A stretch of DNA of 22,168 bases from a virus, in the IMG/VR virus record IMGVR_UViG_3300032282_000152, positions 1-22,168 of that record; one strand, 5' to 3'. The notes beneath the pieces are model-generated. The model saw only the letters and a program-made list of their open reading frames with translations, did no database searches and had not been told where the DNA came from. Below, piece by piece: positions 673-7,580 of this stretch (its first letter is position 1; every line of letters starts with the position of its first letter). The translations under genes and the position numbers were made by a program.

Positions 673-703
673 TAATGAAAGAGCGACCTTGGGGTCTTAG
701 TTG

Positions 704-2269
704 ATGGAAATTATAGATAATACCGCAGTTAAACTTACCGTGCCTGAGCACATTGTTTCTCACATCACAAGCAATATTGAAAAATGTGAAGTGCTAGAAC
801 AAAAAGGCAATCTTACAGACCTTGTTGTATTCTGGGGTGTTGATGAGATGACTCGCCTTAACCAACTAATTTCATTTAGAAATAACTTACCTTCACCTAT
901 TGTGCGTGACTATGATTGGCCTGGTATTTATAAACCTTTCGATCACCAACGCATTACATCAGAGTTCTTATCTATCAATCATCGCGCCTTTTGTTTTAAC
1001 GAAGCGGGTACAGGTAAAACTTCGTCAGTACTTTGGTCAGCAGATTATTTAATGAAGCAAGGCAAAGTTAAACGCGTTCTTATTATATGTCCTCTATCGA
1101 TCATGTATTCAGCTTGGCAAGGCGATGTCTTTAATACGTGCATGCACAGATCAGTAGGTATCGCTCACGGCACTTCAACTAAAAGAGAAAAGATTATTAA
1201 TGGTGATTACGAATTCGTTATTATTAATTATGATGGTGTAGCTATTGTTAAAGATGCAATCATTAAAGGCGGATTTGATTTAGTAGTGATTGATGAAGCT
1301 AACGCATATAAGAGCCCTTCAACAGCCCGATGGAAAACGCTATCTAAAATATTAAAACCTGAAACTAAATTATGGATGATGACAGGTACGCCTGCCGCTC
1401 AATCACCTGTTGATGCTTATGGCTTAGCTAAACTTGTTTGTCCTCAACGCGTACCTAAATTTGCTATGGCTTGGCGGGACAAAGTGATGCAACAAATTAC
1501 AAGATTTAAATGGATACCAAAACATAATGCTAAAGATGAAGTATTCAAAGCATTACAACCAGCGATTAGGTTTGCTAAGAACGAATGTTTAGATTTACCT
1601 GATGTTATGTATCAGACGCGTGATATACCATTGACTCCGCAAGTTCAAAAATATTATAAGCAATTAAAAGAACAGATGTTAATTGAGACTGCAGGTGAGT
1701 CAGTCAGTGCTGTGAATGCCGCGGCCAATCTTAATAAGCTATTACAAATATCAGGCGGTGCAGTATATACAGATAAAAAAGAAGTTATTGAGTTTGATAT
1801 TTCACCTCGTCTATCTGCGTTAAGTGAAGTGATTGCTGAGACTACTAATAAGATATTAGTATTTGTACCCTACCGACATACGATACGAGTTGTATCTCAA
1901 TACTTAACTAAACAAGATATATCAAACGAAGTTATTAACGGGGAAGTATCAGCGACAGATAGAGCGCACATCATTCAACGCTTTCAAAGTATGGACGATC
2001 CTCGTGTATTAGTCATTCAACCTCAAGCGGCTTCTCACGGAGTGACGCTAACTAGAGCAGATACCATAGTCTTTTGGAGTCCTGTAATGGGAGTTGAAAC
2101 TTACCTACAATGCGTTGCCCGTATGGATCGTGTAGGTCAGAAGAATAAGATGACAGTTGTTCATCTTGAAGGGTCAGATGTAGAGAAAAGAATTTATAAG
2201 ATGTTGCAAGGCAAAGTAGATTTACATACCAAGTTAGTTGATCTTTATAGGGAGGAGTTAGAATCATGA
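704..2269 (+). CDS. SNF2-type superfamily 2 DNA helicase/translocase
   Basis: A 521-residue helicase with all the landmarks of the SNF2 branch of superfamily 2. Counting from the ATG, these are: Walker A EAGTGKT near 100-106, motif Ia LIICPLS, motif II VVIDEAN near 195-201, motif III MMTGTP, a RecA-like second lobe with ILVFVPYR, and motifs V/VI including QCVARMDRVGQK near 467-478. It should hydrolyse ATP to translocate along double-stranded DNA. In phages such proteins serve in replication or recombination, for example by remodelling forks or displacing bound protein. The ATG at 704 is preferred over the in-frame TTG at 701; a GGGG run lies 10 bases upstream. The stop overlaps the next ATG (ATGA at 2266-2269), so the two are translationally coupled. 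A promoter with a candidate operator lies just upstream. The family is clear; the precise role is inferred. Confidence 0.93.
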   Translation: MEIIDNTAVKLTVPEHIVSHITSNIEKCEVLEQKGNLTDLVVFWGVDEMTRLNQLISFRNNLPSPIVRDYDWPGIYKPFDHQRITSEFLSINHRAFCFNEAGTGKTSSVLWSADYLMKQGKVKRVLIICPLSIMYSAWQGDVFNTCMHRSVGIAHGTSTKREKIINGDYEFVIINYDGVAIVKDAIIKGGFDLVVIDEANAYKSPSTARWKTLSKILKPETKLWMMTGTPAAQSPVDAYGLAKLVCPQRVPKFAMAWRDKVMQQITRFKWIPKHNAKDEVFKALQPAIRFAKNECLDLPDVMYQTRDIPLTPQVQKYYKQLKEQMLIETAGESVSAVNAAANLNKLLQISGGAVYTDKKEVIEFDISPRLSALSEVIAETTNKILVFVPYRHTIRVVSQYLTKQDISNEVINGEVSATDRAHIIQRFQSMDDPRVLVIQPQAASHGVTLTRADTIVFWSPVMGVETYLQCVARMDRVGQKNKMTVVHLEGSDVEKRIYKMLQGKVDLHTKLVDLYREELES

Positions 2270-2997
2270 TTTTCCTATTCAAAAAACCAAAGTTGGTATT
2301 AGATTTTTTTACTTATTCAGAACCTGCGTACCACGCTAATAAAATTGATTACGCACACAGCTTTTACCCACAATGGTGGAAAGATACACCCAAAACTTAC
2401 ACTAATGATTTTTATGAAGCTTCTACTATAAAAAAATGTAGAGCAGTTATAGATAGCTATCAATATGGAGCCATAATTCCTATGTGGAGTGATATGGCAT
2501 TAGATATAAAAAATAAAACATATAAATGGCAGTTTGCAGATTTTAAAACTGAAGCTCATGCGCATTCAGCGGAGCAATGGAAAACTTATGCTGATCCAAA
2601 AAATTACGCGCATTTAAAAATAATATCTCCTTGGAGCGTCAAATGTAAACATAATATAAAGTTTCAATTTTTAAGCCCTTTTTGGAGCCACCCTATAGAT
2701 TCAATATATCGCGTTTTGCCAGGGATAGTAGATTATAAATACAATTATGGTACTCATATTAATTTATTAATAAATATACAAAATGATTATCGAGGTATGA
2801 TACCCGCGGCTACTCCAATGGCACATATAATTCCTTTGAGTGAAAAAGAGCTTATAATTAAAAATCATTTAGTCAGTATAGAAGAATATAAAAATAATTT
2901 TTGGGATCCATATACATTTACTGATGCATATAAACATGCTAAAAATAATATTGATAAGCAAGAAAAATGTCCGTTCAATTTTTTAAGGGGGAAGTGA
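2266..2997 (+). CDS. AT-rich inserted gene, DUF6065-like protein of unknown function
   Basis: A 243-residue protein rich in Trp, Tyr, Lys, Asn and His, with no signal peptide or membrane segment. A segment around residues 120-205 has the pattern IISPWSVK, then LPGIVDYKYNYG, then IPAATPMAHIIPL. This recalls a family found in T4-like and other phages, and in mobile elements, with a PW...GiVD.D.Y...GTP..QviPf layout (DUF6065 type, from memory). That family has no function I know of. The gene is more AT-rich than its neighbours and uses ATA for Ile very often, while the flanking replication genes use mainly ATT and ATC. It overlaps the helicase stop (ATGA) and the next start (TGATG), so it is fitted neatly into the operon. 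It looks like a later acquisition. No catalytic motif was identified. Confidence 0.85.
   Translation: MIFLFKKPKLVLDFFTYSEPAYHANKIDYAHSFYPQWWKDTPKTYTNDFYEASTIKKCRAVIDSYQYGAIIPMWSDMALDIKNKTYKWQFADFKTEAHAHSAEQWKTYADPKNYAHLKIISPWSVKCKHNIKFQFLSPFWSHPIDSIYRVLPGIVDYKYNYGTHINLLINIQNDYRGMIPAATPMAHIIPLSEKELIIKNHLVSIEEYKNNFWDPYTFTDAYKHAKNNIDKQEKCPFNFLRGK
2985..2992 (+). promoter_or_regulatory. Ribosome binding site that decides the next start
   Basis: AAGGGGGA ends four bases before the ATG at 2997 and lies inside the end of the preceding gene. It supports 2997 over the in-frame ATG at 2967, which has no such site. Confidence 0.6.
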
Positions 2998-3404
2998 TGA
3001 GTGATAATATTAAGTTAGATGAGATTGTACAAGCTTACTTGACAATACGCGGTCAACGTGAGAATATAGCAAGAGAGTTTGAGTTACAAGACGCTGAACT
3101 AAAAGCAGAACAAGCGCAATTAGAACAAGTGTTATTAGAGCAGTGCAATGAAATGAACGCCGAGACAATACGTACAGGCGCAGGTACAATAGTTAAGACT
3201 TTAAAAGAAAGTTATATATGTAGTGATTGGGATGGCCTTAAATCATTCATCATGGAAAACGGATTGATTGAGTTAATGCAACAACGATTACACAATACTA
3301 ATCTTAAAGAGTACTTAGCTAACCACGATGGCGAAGGTATGCCACCAGGAGTTAGTTCATTCAGAGAATATAGTATTGTAGTTAAGAAACCTAGTAAATC
3401 TTAA
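2997..3404 (+). CDS. Small coiled-coil phage protein of the replication module
   Basis: A 135-residue acidic protein. Residues about 10-55 are a heptad-rich, Glu/Gln-rich helix that should form a coiled coil. A compact second half follows with TIRTGAGTIVKTLKESY, then SDWDGLKSFIMENG, LMQQRLHNTNLKEYL and the end PPGVSSFREYSIVVKKP. I recognise this as a recurrent phage family (pattern: coiled coil, IRT..GT......Y...DW..F..F......LL..R....N..e.L......PPG......V.KP), usually next to ssDNA-binding or recombination genes; its biochemical role is unknown to me. The start at 2997 has a strong ribosome binding site; the longer frame from 2967 is less likely. The preceding stop overlaps this start as TGATG. 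The putative ssDNA-binding gene follows after 10 bases. Confidence 0.85.
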   Translation: MSDNIKLDEIVQAYLTIRGQRENIAREFELQDAELKAEQAQLEQVLLEQCNEMNAETIRTGAGTIVKTLKESYICSDWDGLKSFIMENGLIELMQQRLHNTNLKEYLANHDGEGMPPGVSSFREYSIVVKKPSKS

Positions 3405-4733: not shown

Positions 4734-7580
4734 ATGATGAAAGAATTTTATAAGAAAGCTTTGCCATCTACAGGCGTTTATTGTGTAGCTACGATTGATC
4801 CGATAGCTAAAATAACCAAGCATAAATTCGTAGAAAATGTTGACGAGCTCGCGGAGTTTATTGAGTCAAAAAAGAATACACCTACTAATATCTTTGTTGC
4901 ACTGAGTTCATTCGGCGGGTATAGTCGTAAAGCTGATGAAGCTAAATTTGTTAAGTCCTTCTTCGTTGATCTTGATGTGGGAGAAGGTAAAGGCTACGCA
5001 TCTAAAGAAGAAGCAATCCAAGCGATTGACCAATTCGTACTAGACTATGATCTTCCTCCTCCTGTTAAGATAGACTCGGGAACAGGTATCCATTCTTACT
5101 GGATATTTGATCGTGACATTCCCGCAACCGAGTGGAAACCCTACGCAGAAAAATTTAAAGAGTTTTGCTTAAGTCATGGCTTAAACATAGACCCGGTAGT
5201 CACCGCCGATTTAGCACGCATCTTACGTTGTCCTGATACATTTAATCAAAAAACTACACCCCCTATGCCTACTAAAGTTATGGGTAAAGACTTGCCTATC
5301 TATGTATTTGATGAGTTTAAAACATTCTTAGGTAATCTTGAACCTAGTCTTGCTGACATATTACAGGCCGCACCAAAAGGTCTTAGTGAAGATCAACGTA
5401 AAGCATTAAAGCTAGATAACTTCGAATCTAACTTCGATAAAATCGTACAATCAAAAGGTTGTGCTCAAATCAATTTTATTATAGATAATGTAAAGATTCT
5501 ACAAGAACCTTTGTGGTACTCAGGCTTATCCATAGCGCAACACTGTGCCGATAAAGAATCAGCTATTCATTTAATTTCGAAGGACTATCCTAACTATGAT
5601 GAAAAAGAAACTATTAGAAAGGCGCAAGCCACACAAGGTATGCCTCACTCATGTGAGACTTTTAATAATGTCAATCCTGGGATATGTAGTGGCTGCCCTA
5701 GTCGTGGCAAAATTACTAATCCATTAGCATTAGGTAAAATATTTAAAATAGCTGTCGAAGAACCGATCAAACCATTAGATCAATCGATGTCAGTTAAGAC
5801 TATTGAGCATATTAAAGAACATGCAGAGGTAGTCACACGGGGTTTATCATCGTTGCCCGAAGCTCTCTATCCGTTCGTATATGGTAAGGAAGGTGGTATC
5901 TATTGTATGCCTGCCCCTAAATATGATGAAGATGGAGTGCCTATTCCTGGTGATCCAATATTAGTAACATTGTATGACCTATTCCCACTGAAACGGATTT
6001 ATAGTCCCGCAGATGGGGATTGCTTGTTAATGAAAGCGATATTGCCAAATGACCCTGAACGCGAGTTTTTACTCCCTATGAGCAAGGTTTATGCAATAGA
6101 GGATTTAAAAAAGATCATCGCGTCTCAAGGTGTTTTATTTAATACAGATGCCAAAGGAGGCCAATATCTTATGAATTATCTAGTTAAATGGGGACATTAC
6201 CTCACAAACAAAAATGCCGCAGAAATCATGCGTATGCAAATGGGTTGGACGCCCAATCAAGAATCCTTTGTAGTAGGAGAGTCAGAGCTATTAAGAGATG
6301 GTAAAGAAGTCACATCACCTACCTCACCTTTATGTAAGAGTATAGCTAAACACTTAACACCTGCAGGTTCATATGAAGCATGGAAGGAAGCCGCTAATAA
6401 ACTTAGTAAACCTAGTCTTGAACTACATGCGTTTACTTTGTTAACTGGGTTCGGCTCAATCTTAATGAATAAAACCTCGACATCAGGGGTAACTATATCC
6501 TTAACAGGTGAATCAGGTGCAGCTAAGACTGGTGCGCTATATAGTTGTCTCTCTGTTTGGGGTAACCCGAAAGACCTATCGGTACTAGAAGCTACGTCAA
6601 ATGGTATGACAGGACGTTATCTAGGTCTTCACAATATTCCATTTGGTTTAGATGAAGTAGGTAACATTATCCCTAAAGACTTATCTCAGTTGATCCACAA
6701 GATTTCACAAGGTAAATCTAAAATCCGTATGCAAGCATCAGTCAATGCAGAACGAGATCATGAGATGTCAGCTAGTTTGATCGCTATATTTACTTCTAAC
6801 CAGAGTATGTATGACAAACTAAGTATACTTAAAAAAGATCCTAATGGTGAGGTGGCTAGGTTAATCGAGTTTGCAGTACGTAAACCACAAGCATTCCTTG
6901 ATGACCCTACACTAGGTAAAGAAATCTTTGATAAGTTTAGATTCAATTATGGCTGGGCGGGTCGCGAGTTTATCTTTGCTTTGTATAAACAAAGTGATGA
7001 CCAAGTTCAAAAGATGATGGATAAATGGGTTGACCAATTTAGAAAAGATTTTGGCGAAGATACAGCTTATCGATTCTATGAGAACTTAATTGCAGCTACG
7101 ATGACTGCGGGTGAAATAGCTGTTAATGCAGGCATAGTTCGATATGATCTTAAAAAGATTTATAACAGGATTGTCGGCGAAATGGTAGCTATACGTGATA
7201 ACGTAGTTAAGGTTAACGTGATTGATTACGAAGCTCTTATTGGTGAATTTATTAATGCTCATCAAACAGGCATTCTTGCGTTTAAAGATAATAAGATTTC
7301 AATGGAACCTCGTTCCCCTTTAGTTATTCGCGCTGAACTTGATACTCATTTGATCTATATATCTAAGCCTGAATTCCGTAAACACTTAGCAGAGAACCAA
7401 GTAAGTACTCGAGAGTTCTTGTATCAAATGAAACAGGCAGGGATTGAAGTCAAAGAATCTCGTAAGCGTATGGGTACAGGCTGGAAAGATGCAACTGCAT
7501 CAGTCAATGTAGAAGTATATGTACTTAATACAACTAAACTATCAGAACGTGCATTAGGAGCTACTCCTGAGCTTGTCTAA
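4734..7580 (+). CDS. Primase-helicase: AEP primase fused to DUF927-like helicase
   Basis: A 948-residue replication protein. The N-terminal archaeo-eukaryotic primase domain shows FFVDLDVG (metal ligands D79 and D81), SGTGIHSYWIF (115-125, His120) and ADLARILRCPDTFN (158-171). These are the three standard AEP motifs, so it should make primers or short DNA. A linker domain (about 230-330) has cysteines 243, 307, 318 and 321 (CSGCP), a likely zinc or iron-sulfur site as in other mobile-element primases. The C-terminal part is an ATPase of DUF927-helicase type: Walker A GESGAAKT near 592-599, Walker B PFGLDEVG near 637-644, and KISQGKSKIRMQ, where the family has a glycine-lysine-arginine motif. 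The last 200 residues include a winged-helix-like region. AGGA lies 8 bases before the ATG; a second ATG follows directly. It probably initiates and drives replication of this phage. The domain call is strong. Confidence 0.92.
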   Translation: MMKEFYKKALPSTGVYCVATIDPIAKITKHKFVENVDELAEFIESKKNTPTNIFVALSSFGGYSRKADEAKFVKSFFVDLDVGEGKGYASKEEAIQAIDQFVLDYDLPPPVKIDSGTGIHSYWIFDRDIPATEWKPYAEKFKEFCLSHGLNIDPVVTADLARILRCPDTFNQKTTPPMPTKVMGKDLPIYVFDEFKTFLGNLEPSLADILQAAPKGLSEDQRKALKLDNFESNFDKIVQSKGCAQINFIIDNVKILQEPLWYSGLSIAQHCADKESAIHLISKDYPNYDEKETIRKAQATQGMPHSCETFNNVNPGICSGCPSRGKITNPLALGKIFKIAVEEPIKPLDQSMSVKTIEHIKEHAEVVTRGLSSLPEALYPFVYGKEGGIYCMPAPKYDEDGVPIPGDPILVTLYDLFPLKRIYSPADGDCLLMKAILPNDPEREFLLPMSKVYAIEDLKKIIASQGVLFNTDAKGGQYLMNYLVKWGHYLTNKNAAEIMRMQMGWTPNQESFVVGESELLRDGKEVTSPTSPLCKSIAKHLTPAGSYEAWKEAANKLSKPSLELHAFTLLTGFGSILMNKTSTSGVTISLTGESGAAKTGALYSCLSVWGNPKDLSVLEATSNGMTGRYLGLHNIPFGLDEVGNIIPKDLSQLIHKISQGKSKIRMQASVNAERDHEMSASLIAIFTSNQSMYDKLSILKKDPNGEVARLIEFAVRKPQAFLDDPTLGKEIFDKFRFNYGWAGREFIFALYKQSDDQVQKMMDKWVDQFRKDFGEDTAYRFYENLIAATMTAGEIAVNAGIVRYDLKKIYNRIVGEMVAIRDNVVKVNVIDYEALIGEFINAHQTGILAFKDNKISMEPRSPLVIRAELDTHLIYISKPEFRKHLAENQVSTREFLYQMKQAGIEVKESRKRMGTGWKDATASVNVEVYVLNTTKLSERALGATPELV

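What the first reader, a model, noticed from the sequence alone, without database searches (positions are those of the whole stretch)
2266..2997. AT-rich gene inserted seamlessly in the replication operon
This gene differs from both neighbours in composition and in heavy use of ATA for Ile, yet overlaps each by stop/start codons. It has no replication motif and recalls a phage family of unknown function. Such cargo inside an early operon often has a role against the host or against competing phages.
Basis: partly seen in the sequence, partly recalled or inferred. Interest (0 to 1): 0.55.

Follow-up and report, generated by a model that had tools for sequence, protein, structure and literature searches.

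The report
Phage cargo gene with dUTPase-like fold
A phage carries one extra gene, fitted without a scar between two replication genes, whose product is predicted to have the fold of the DNA-precursor enzyme dUTPase but a rebuilt active site, and whose relatives in ocean viruses sit beside a halogen-adding enzyme of unknown purpose.

Summary
The 243-codon gene at 2266-2997 is absent from this slot in all 91 related contigs in which the slot could be read. In 21 of 24 close relatives the helicase overlaps the 2997 gene directly (ATGA); three carry unrelated small genes there. The 731-bp insert brings a ribosome-binding-like sequence for the next gene, so the slot stays coupled. Low GC is weaker evidence: 50 of 54 other family members are also AT-richer than their surroundings, and third-position GC is ordinary.

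The protein belongs to a phage family of unknown function (phrog_7084). Two AlphaFold models (pLDDT 94 and 81) match dUTPases in nearly every top row, and weak profile alignments place dUTPase motifs III-IV in register. It is not a canonical dUTPase: motif IV Gln is His, motif II is lost, no Pfam match. Invariant Cys58, Lys118 and a KCP element found either C-terminally or in an internal loop suggest a new centre. In cyanophages the family directly follows VirX1-type halogenases.

Best reading: mobile accessory gene for a remodelled nucleotide-pocket enzyme. An anti-host or anti-phage role is untested.

The parts
2266..2997 (+). inserted gene, 243 aa, phrog_7084 family, predicted dUTPase-like fold
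   Evidence: absent at this site in 91 of 91 readable related contigs
2266..2996 (.). 731-bp inserted segment (boundaries uncertain by the 4-base ATGA shared by both ends)
   Evidence: alignment of the window with empty sites
701..2269 (+). SNF2-type DNA helicase, gene before the slot
   Evidence: PF00176 E 3.9e-19, phrog_62 E 5e-100
2997..3404 (+). gene after the slot, 135 aa from the ATG at 2997, unknown function
   Evidence: phrog_13900 E 1.6e-20, labelled 'minor head protein'; conserved after the helicase
2266..2269 (+). ATGA: start of the inserted gene overlapping the helicase stop
   Evidence: sequence; the same ATGA starts the 2997 gene in empty relatives
2251..2255 (+). GGAGG ribosome-binding-like sequence inside the helicase end, serving whichever gene sits in the slot (inferred)
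   Evidence: sequence
2985..2994 (+). AAGGGGGAAG ribosome-binding-like sequence carried by the insert for the 2997 gene (inferred)
   Evidence: sequence
2437..2439 (+). codon of Cys58, invariant in 62 of 62 aligned members
2485..2493 (+). WSD, residues 74-76; possible counterpart of dUTPase motif I Asp (inferred)
2563..2565 (+). codon of His100, 61 of 62
2617..2619 (+). codon of Lys118, 62 of 62
2722..2742 (+). residues 153-159 GIVDYKY, counterpart of dUTPase motif III
   Evidence: hhalign register
2809..2826 (+). residues 182-187 ATPMAH, counterpart of dUTPase motif IV, Gln replaced by His187
   Evidence: hhalign register; conservation
2965..2976 (+). KCPF element, residues 234-237, in a low-confidence C-terminal tail; possible counterpart of the dUTPase motif V arm (inferred)
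4734..7580 (+). primase/helicase-type replication protein of the same operon
   Evidence: PF06048 E 1.7e-23; phrog_8841 E 4e-32

Best explanation
The gene is an accessory (moron) gene that entered a reusable cargo slot at the stop/start overlap between helicase and the 2997 gene, and is presumably transcribed and translated with the replication genes. It encodes a protein with the dUTPase-type fold whose classical active site has been rebuilt: the nucleotide-pocket hairpin of motifs III-IV is kept in outline, motif II and the motif IV glutamine are replaced, and an invariant Cys58/His100/Lys118 set plus a mobile KCP element are added. Most likely it binds and chemically processes a nucleotide or nucleotide-like small molecule during early infection, not dUTP in the classical way. 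Shown: insertion, family, purifying selection in a sister clade. Predicted with good support: the fold. Inferred: co-expression, ligand type, catalysis.
For: Empty sites and alternative cargo. Structure model pLDDT 94.3, pTM 0.88. Foldseek PDB: 49 of 50 rows shown are dUTPases, one a dCTP deaminase, best E 1.5e-4. VIA-align Z 10.6, rmsd 2.5 over 119 residues, all rows dUTPases. A second model of a member about 20% identical gives the same: Z 10.9, rmsd 3.0 over 115. Profile-profile alignments put motifs III-IV in one register: score 22.2 (E 0.016) for 53 sequences, 27.2 (E 0.002) with cyanophage members added and 30.8 (E 8e-4) for the cyanophage-type subset, against a maximum of 21.2 in 40 column shuffles each. 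One member is annotated in GenBank as 'triphosphate nucleotidohydrolase' (S-CREM1_70). Purifying selection: dN/dS 0.03-0.12 in 21 pairs of one clade. Nucleotide-related neighbours elsewhere: ribonucleotide reductase next door but one in HF2, RNR subunits a few genes upstream in S-RIM4, 3 dCMP-deaminase-type, 2 NUDIX, 1 GTP cyclohydrolase I among 142 neighbour proteins.
Against: No catalytic test. Pfam and NCBIfam find nothing convincing, and sequence-level homology is weak (hhalign probability at most 48% in any comparison). Outside the replication setting the family lies most often near 2OG-Fe(II) oxygenases, tail-fibre genes and halogenases, which need not act on nucleotides. The motif III acid is D or E in only 38 of 53 members. 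28 of the 31 records searched, most of them fragments, have no PF00692 match, so no argument from redundancy with a true dUTPase is possible.
Confidence: 0.5

Rival explanations
1. It is a non-catalytic binder: a dUTPase scaffold turned into a sponge, decoy or regulator that captures a nucleotide signal or a host or rival-phage regulator (counter-defence, host takeover or superinfection control).
For: Single-gene cargo in a swappable slot of an early-type operon. Classical catalytic residues drift (motif III acid D 19, E 19, N 8, S 5, T 1, Q 1 of 53). Phage dUTPases are known to act as signals by binding the Stl repressor (PMC5593958, abstract and passages seen). Four contigs carry two family copies.
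Against: No PADLOC match; no defence genes seen beside it; the most invariant residues (Cys, His, Lys) look like chemistry rather than a passive pocket; wide spread in archaeal and cyanobacterial viruses without a common defence setting.
Confidence: 0.22
2. It works with Fe(II)/2OG oxygenases and flavin halogenases on tail-fibre proteins or another non-nucleotide substrate, and the copy in this window is a stand-alone relative.
For: In cyanophages the family gene directly follows the VirX1-type halogenase and precedes an oxygenase array beside tail-fibre genes. All 14 records with a halogenase >=43.8% identical to VirX1 also hold the family gene, against 0 of the 46 other halogenase records listed (threshold chosen after seeing the list; the 14 records are 8 phages). 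2OG oxygenases are the commonest neighbours.
Against: The window has neither a halogenase nor a PF13640 oxygenase in 22 kb. Only 6 of 30 family-bearing records have a halogenase against 0 of 20 without the family (p 0.07), and 16 of 30 against 5 of 20 for PF13640 (p 0.08), with phage type and contig length as confounders.
Confidence: 0.2
3. It is simply a fast-evolving working dUTPase or dNTPase that keeps uracil out of phage DNA.
For: Fold; Asp156 and Tyr159 of the window protein sit where motif III has Asp and Tyr; replication operon.
Against: Motif IV Gln is His in 51 of 53 and motif II RS is not kept; no PF00692 match. Three family-bearing records carry a separate PF00692 protein (two dUTPase-like, one dCTP-deaminase-like in HF2).
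Confidence: 0.06
4. The gene was ancestral and lost in the relatives, or the window is a mis-assembly.
For: Only one contig with this arrangement is known here; the collections may withhold records very near the window.
Against: 21 of 24 close relatives are empty and 3 hold different genes; 0 of 11 close-relative records carry the family anywhere in the part held; flanks match relatives at 84-92% upstream and 81-100% downstream over 15 loci, and both junctions are in-frame overlaps with coding sense.
Confidence: 0.04

Closest known systems
phrog_7084 (viral protein family, unknown function; includes syn9 gp43 and an HF2 protein)
   Same: Window protein E 2.2e-23; HF2 protein E 1.2e-95, syn9 gp43 E 1.8e-71, S-RIM4 protein E 1.8e-35. 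Shared Cys58, Lys118, Pro122-Trp123, Pro184.
   Different: The window protein is a distant member (hits to phage genomes 21-25% identical; best metagenomic relatives about 41%) in a new genomic place.
Trimeric dUTPase (PF00692), e.g. P. falciparum 2y8c, ASFV 6kz6, E. coli Dut
   Same: Predicted fold (Z 10.6, 119 residues aligned); hairpin of motifs III-IV in register; flexible conserved C-terminal tail.
   Different: About 90-100 residues longer; motif IV Gln to His; motif II not kept; invariant Cys/His/Lys; no Pfam match; tail is KCPFxF instead of the Gly-rich motif V.
dCTP deaminase / Dcd-Dut (e.g. 2yzj)
   Same: Same superfamily fold; appears in the Foldseek list at E 7e-3.
   Different: No residue-level agreement beyond the common hairpin was shown; adding Dcd sequences to the dUTPase profile lowered the score.
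Cyanophage VirX1 module (PDB 6qgm halogenase plus 2OG oxygenases)
   Same: A phrog_7084 member is the direct downstream neighbour of VirX1 in Syn10 and syn9.
   Different: No halogenase or PF13640 oxygenase in the window record.
Staphylococcal phage dUTPases that derepress SaPIs through Stl
   Same: Phage proteins of the same fold; precedent for signalling by this fold (PMC5593958, passages seen).
   Different: Those are active dUTPases with motifs IV-VI; no Stl-like partner was sought or known here.

Membership tests
phrog_7084 | profile match | tested here: met
   E 2.2e-23, residues 14-199; 12 of 12 members of A1 match
dUTPase-like fold superfamily | fold | tested here: met
   two predicted models; Foldseek E 1.5e-4 and 6.6e-4, VIA Z 10.6 and 10.9; no experimental structure
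Canonical trimeric dUTPase | PF00692 profile match | tested here: not met
   0 Pfam families at E up to 10 for the window protein; none for 12 members; window record 0 matches
Canonical trimeric dUTPase | motif III Asp (base) and Tyr | tested here: inconclusive
   window has D156 and Y159 by hhalign register; D in 19 of 53, Y in 30 of 53
Canonical trimeric dUTPase | motif IV Gln (GxRxAQ) | tested here: not met
   His187 in the window and 51 of 53; Gln in 2 of 53 and in 6 of 9 cyanophage members
Canonical trimeric dUTPase | motif II Arg-Ser | tested here: not met
   aligned region is PxW/YN-like (columns 137-141), register from one weak hhalign alignment
Canonical trimeric dUTPase | Gly-rich motif V arm folding over the active site | tested here: inconclusive
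   a conserved KCPFGFG-type tail exists in 46 of 62 but differs in sequence; placement over the pocket not testable
Canonical trimeric dUTPase | trimer; dUTP hydrolysis | not testable with these tools
   no multimer prediction or assay available
Anti-phage defence or counter-defence gene | match to a known defence family | tested here: inconclusive
   PADLOC 0 families; PADLOC does not cover counter-defence well
Moron / accessory cargo gene | present/absent polymorphism at one site among close relatives | tested here: met
   21 empty, 3 other cargo of 24 close contigs
Moron / accessory cargo gene | own promoter and terminator | not tested
   no promoter or terminator scan was run; boundaries leave room for ribosome-binding sequences only

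The most novel reading that the evidence does not exclude
phrog_7084 is a virus-specific branch of the dUTPase fold that has given up classical dUTP hydrolysis for a new Cys-His-Lys centre, completed by a KCP element that has moved between the C-terminal tail and an internal loop. It processes unusual (for example halogenated or oxidised) nucleotides: in cyanophages it would make or remove halogenated nucleotides next to VirX1, giving that halogenase a physiological partner, and in this phage it would guard or modify the precursor pool of the replication operon.
Probability: 0.12. Interest if true: 0.8.

Novelty: new variant of a known kind. Interest (0 to 1): 0.5.

Why it matters
It gives a fold and a testable biochemical class to a virus family labelled 'unknown function', found in haloarchaeal viruses, cyanophages and many uncultured phages. 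It shows a stop/start overlap in a replication operon acting as a swappable cargo slot. It also points to a strict genetic neighbour of VirX1, a viral halogenase whose natural substrate is, to my knowledge, not known (recalled; the review PMC8407142, passages seen, lists no gene cluster for it). If the neighbour handles nucleotides, that question becomes directly testable.

Tried and rejected
Low GC as proof of transfer: weakened, because 50 of 54 other members are AT-richer than their own locus and third-position GC is ordinary.

An early idea that Pro122-Trp123 replaces motif II was dropped: the cyanophage-type hhalign alignment puts PW opposite the dUTPase PTG segment and motif II near columns 137-141. 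That register is itself weak.

Homing endonuclease as carrier of the insertion: no such gene lies in or beside the insert. Endonuclease-like genes do occupy the same slot in distant relatives (L060, L078), so the slot attracts such genes, but nothing links them to this insertion.

Cellular relatives: one scan of genome contigs with A1 used a single narrow peptide pattern and confirmed none of 31 candidate stretches; a wider scan could not be built. Absence from cells is therefore only weakly tested.

Solved-structure search by sequence: best E 0.52, unrelated, then none. A viral scan with HF2-type dUTPase-like protein L222 gave 16 close relatives only and with E. coli Dut 6, so the dUTPase profile used is small (9 dUTPases, 2 dCTP-deaminase-type).

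Literature: 'phrog 7084' 0 papers; 'dUTPase-like fold' + phage 0; DURP-type terms 0; further searches (search listings). Passages read: PMC8407142, PMC9964418, PMC3037559, PMC10452541, PMC5593958. The S-CREM1 main text does not mention its 'triphosphate nucleotidohydrolase' (0 occurrences); supplements could not be read.

Rows dropped: one search kept 80 of 304 helicase relatives; one search kept 80 of 131 family relatives; the neighbour scan used 142 of 157 candidate neighbours, themselves restricted to the same strand, 80 to 699 aa and two genes either side; the structure and conservation alignment used 52 loci proteins of 55 non-redundant ones plus P0001, leaving out L001 (the window again), L146 and L147.

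Full report
What is there. The gene at 2266-2997 encodes 243 aa. Its ATG sits in the ATGA that ends the SNF2-type helicase (701-2269) and its TGA shares one base with the ATG of the next gene at 2997. The record is a 22,168-base IMG/VR virus contig. The gene is the AT-richest part of the window (GC 0.306, mean 0.382) and uses ATA for 16 of 23 isoleucines against 107 of 401 elsewhere (p = 4e-5). But its third-position GC (0.225) is ordinary for this genome, and first-position GC is what is low. The family as a whole behaves so: 50 of 54 other members are AT-richer than the rest of their own locus, 30 of them by five points or more. Composition alone would therefore not prove transfer.

Insertion. 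Related contigs were found by the neighbours. In 21 of 24 contigs with helicase >=85% identical the helicase ends in ATGA that directly starts the 2997 gene; the window has 731 extra bases exactly there. Two contigs carry a different 102-aa gene and one a different 107-aa gene at the same place, again joined by overlaps. In 67 more distant contigs the gap runs from nothing to about 1.4 kb; its occupants include endonuclease-like genes and small unknown ones. None of the 91 contigs has the window gene there. A family profile found no member anywhere in the 11 close-relative records searched; two of the 32 other relatives have one elsewhere (L136 record, about 1.5 kb before the helicase; L084 record, position 46350). 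All are possibly fragments. So the site is a cargo slot, and the insert seems to bring its own ribosome-binding-like AAGGGGGAAG for the gene behind it (inference from sequence).

Family. The protein matches phrog_7084, unknown function (E 2.2e-23), and no Pfam family at E up to 10. Relatives occur in 39 phage records, chiefly haloarchaeal HF2-like viruses plus cyanophage S-RIM4, and in many viral contigs. A divergent member finds 24 records, 17 of them cyanophages. Four contigs carry two copies. dN/dS is 0.03-0.12 in 21 pairs within one clade, so the protein is under purifying selection there; the window copy itself has no close homologue for such a test.

Fold. With 53 sequences AlphaFold2 gives pLDDT 94.3, pTM 0.88. 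Foldseek against the PDB returns dUTPases in 49 of 50 rows shown and a dCTP deaminase in one, best E 1.5e-4. VIA-align gives Z 10.6, rmsd 2.5, 119 residues, 13% identity for P. falciparum dUTPase, and all rows shown are dUTPases. A second model, of a member about 20% identical to the first (pLDDT 81.2, alignment of 25, partly shared), again gives dUTPase-superfamily matches throughout, Z 10.9, rmsd 3.0, 115 residues. By sequence the link is weak but consistent: hhalign places GIVDYKY...ATPMAH on dUTPase motifs III-IV (E 0.062; E 0.016). With the cyanophage members included the scores are 27.2 (whole family) and 30.8 (cyanophage-type subset) against at most 21.2 in 40 column shuffles each. A two-sequence profile of the divergent type gave score 34.1, E 1.8e-4. 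GenBank already calls one member, S-CREM1_70, 'triphosphate nucleotidohydrolase'.

Active site. Over 62 aligned members Cys58, Lys118, Pro122, Trp123 and Pro184 are invariant and His100 is 61 of 62. The classical residues are not: motif III acid D 19, E 19, N 8, S 5, T 1, Q 1 of 53; motif IV His in 51 of 53 (Gln in 6 of 9 cyanophage members). A K/R-C-P element occurs in the C-terminal tail of 46, in a loop before Cys58 of 10, in neither place of 6 and in both of 0. The ten internal ones are nine cyanophage sequences (two of them identical) and one other (weak, YCPHS), so this is one or two evolutionary events, not ten. [quoted passage not shown] by analogy KCP may close the pocket from either attachment point. 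That is inference.

Neighbours. In cyanophages the family gene follows the halogenase directly and precedes 2OG-Fe(II) oxygenases beside tail-fibre genes (Syn10, syn9, S-RIM44, S-CREM1, P-TIM40, Sf-FP1, Sf-FR1). The Syn10 halogenase is VirX1 (PDB 6qgm, E 0, 1271 bits, residues 1-530 on 2-531). All 14 records with a halogenase at least 43.8% identical to VirX1 hold the family gene next to it by coordinates or annotation; none of the 46 other halogenase records listed appears among the family hits (65 records in all, 5 not listed; threshold chosen afterwards; the 14 records are 8 phages). Eight of those others were read within 4 kb and scanned with the profile: none. Sf-CH5 and S-RIM4 have the family without an adjacent halogenase. 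Across viral contigs 2OG oxygenases are the commonest neighbours (PF13640 in 14, PF13759 in 7 of 142, overlapping sets), with 4 halogenases and 3 dCMP-deaminase-type proteins. Record-level enrichment is not significant: halogenase 6 of 30 carriers against 0 of 20 non-carriers, p 0.07; PF13640 16 of 30 against 5 of 20, p 0.08. The window itself has neither. Several family members lie near nucleotide genes: ribonucleotide reductase one small gene away in HF2, nrdAB a few genes upstream in S-RIM4.

Interpretation. Insertion, family and cargo slot are shown. The fold is predicted with good support. That the protein handles a nucleotide-like ligand is inferred from fold, kept hairpin and the replication or nucleotide settings of some members; that it is an enzyme is inferred from the invariant Cys, His and Lys. 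Against this stand the oxygenase/halogenase/tail-fibre settings and the drift of classical catalytic residues. An anti-host or anti-phage role is possible but has no direct support (PADLOC none).

Noticed in passing
L251:5398-7762 (cyanophage Syn10); L256:3398-5762 (syn9): The gene of the solved viral halogenase VirX1 overlaps by 17 bases a phrog_7084 gene, and every phage with a close VirX1 relative in the collection has this pair.
   Followed up: partly
cyanophage members of phrog_7084, e.g. L251:6974-7759, L252:9061-9768: The KCP element sits in an internal loop before the invariant Cys instead of the C-terminal tail used by most members; no sequence has both.
   Followed up: partly
L208:1541-2991; L008:5001-7674; L196:2310-5270; L021:5001-7111: Phage contigs with two copies of the family; in L208 the two are tandem and overlapping.
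   Followed up: no
window 2997-3404: phrog_13900 is labelled 'minor head protein', yet its members here are fixed behind a replication helicase; the label may be wrong.
   Followed up: no
L059:7563-8567, L060:7563-8893, L117:7638-8676, L078:7535-7993: The same helicase/2997-gene slot holds lysine-rich or HNH-type endonuclease-like genes in distant relatives.
   Followed up: partly
L042:4657-5001 and L040:4693-5001: Two further unrelated small genes of unknown function in the slot in close relatives; worth screening as cargo.
   Followed up: partly
L253:7975-13465 (S-CREM1): Eight 2OG-Fe(II) oxygenase or JmjC genes in a row behind the halogenase and the phrog_7084 gene, with a collagen-like gene nearby.
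   Followed up: no
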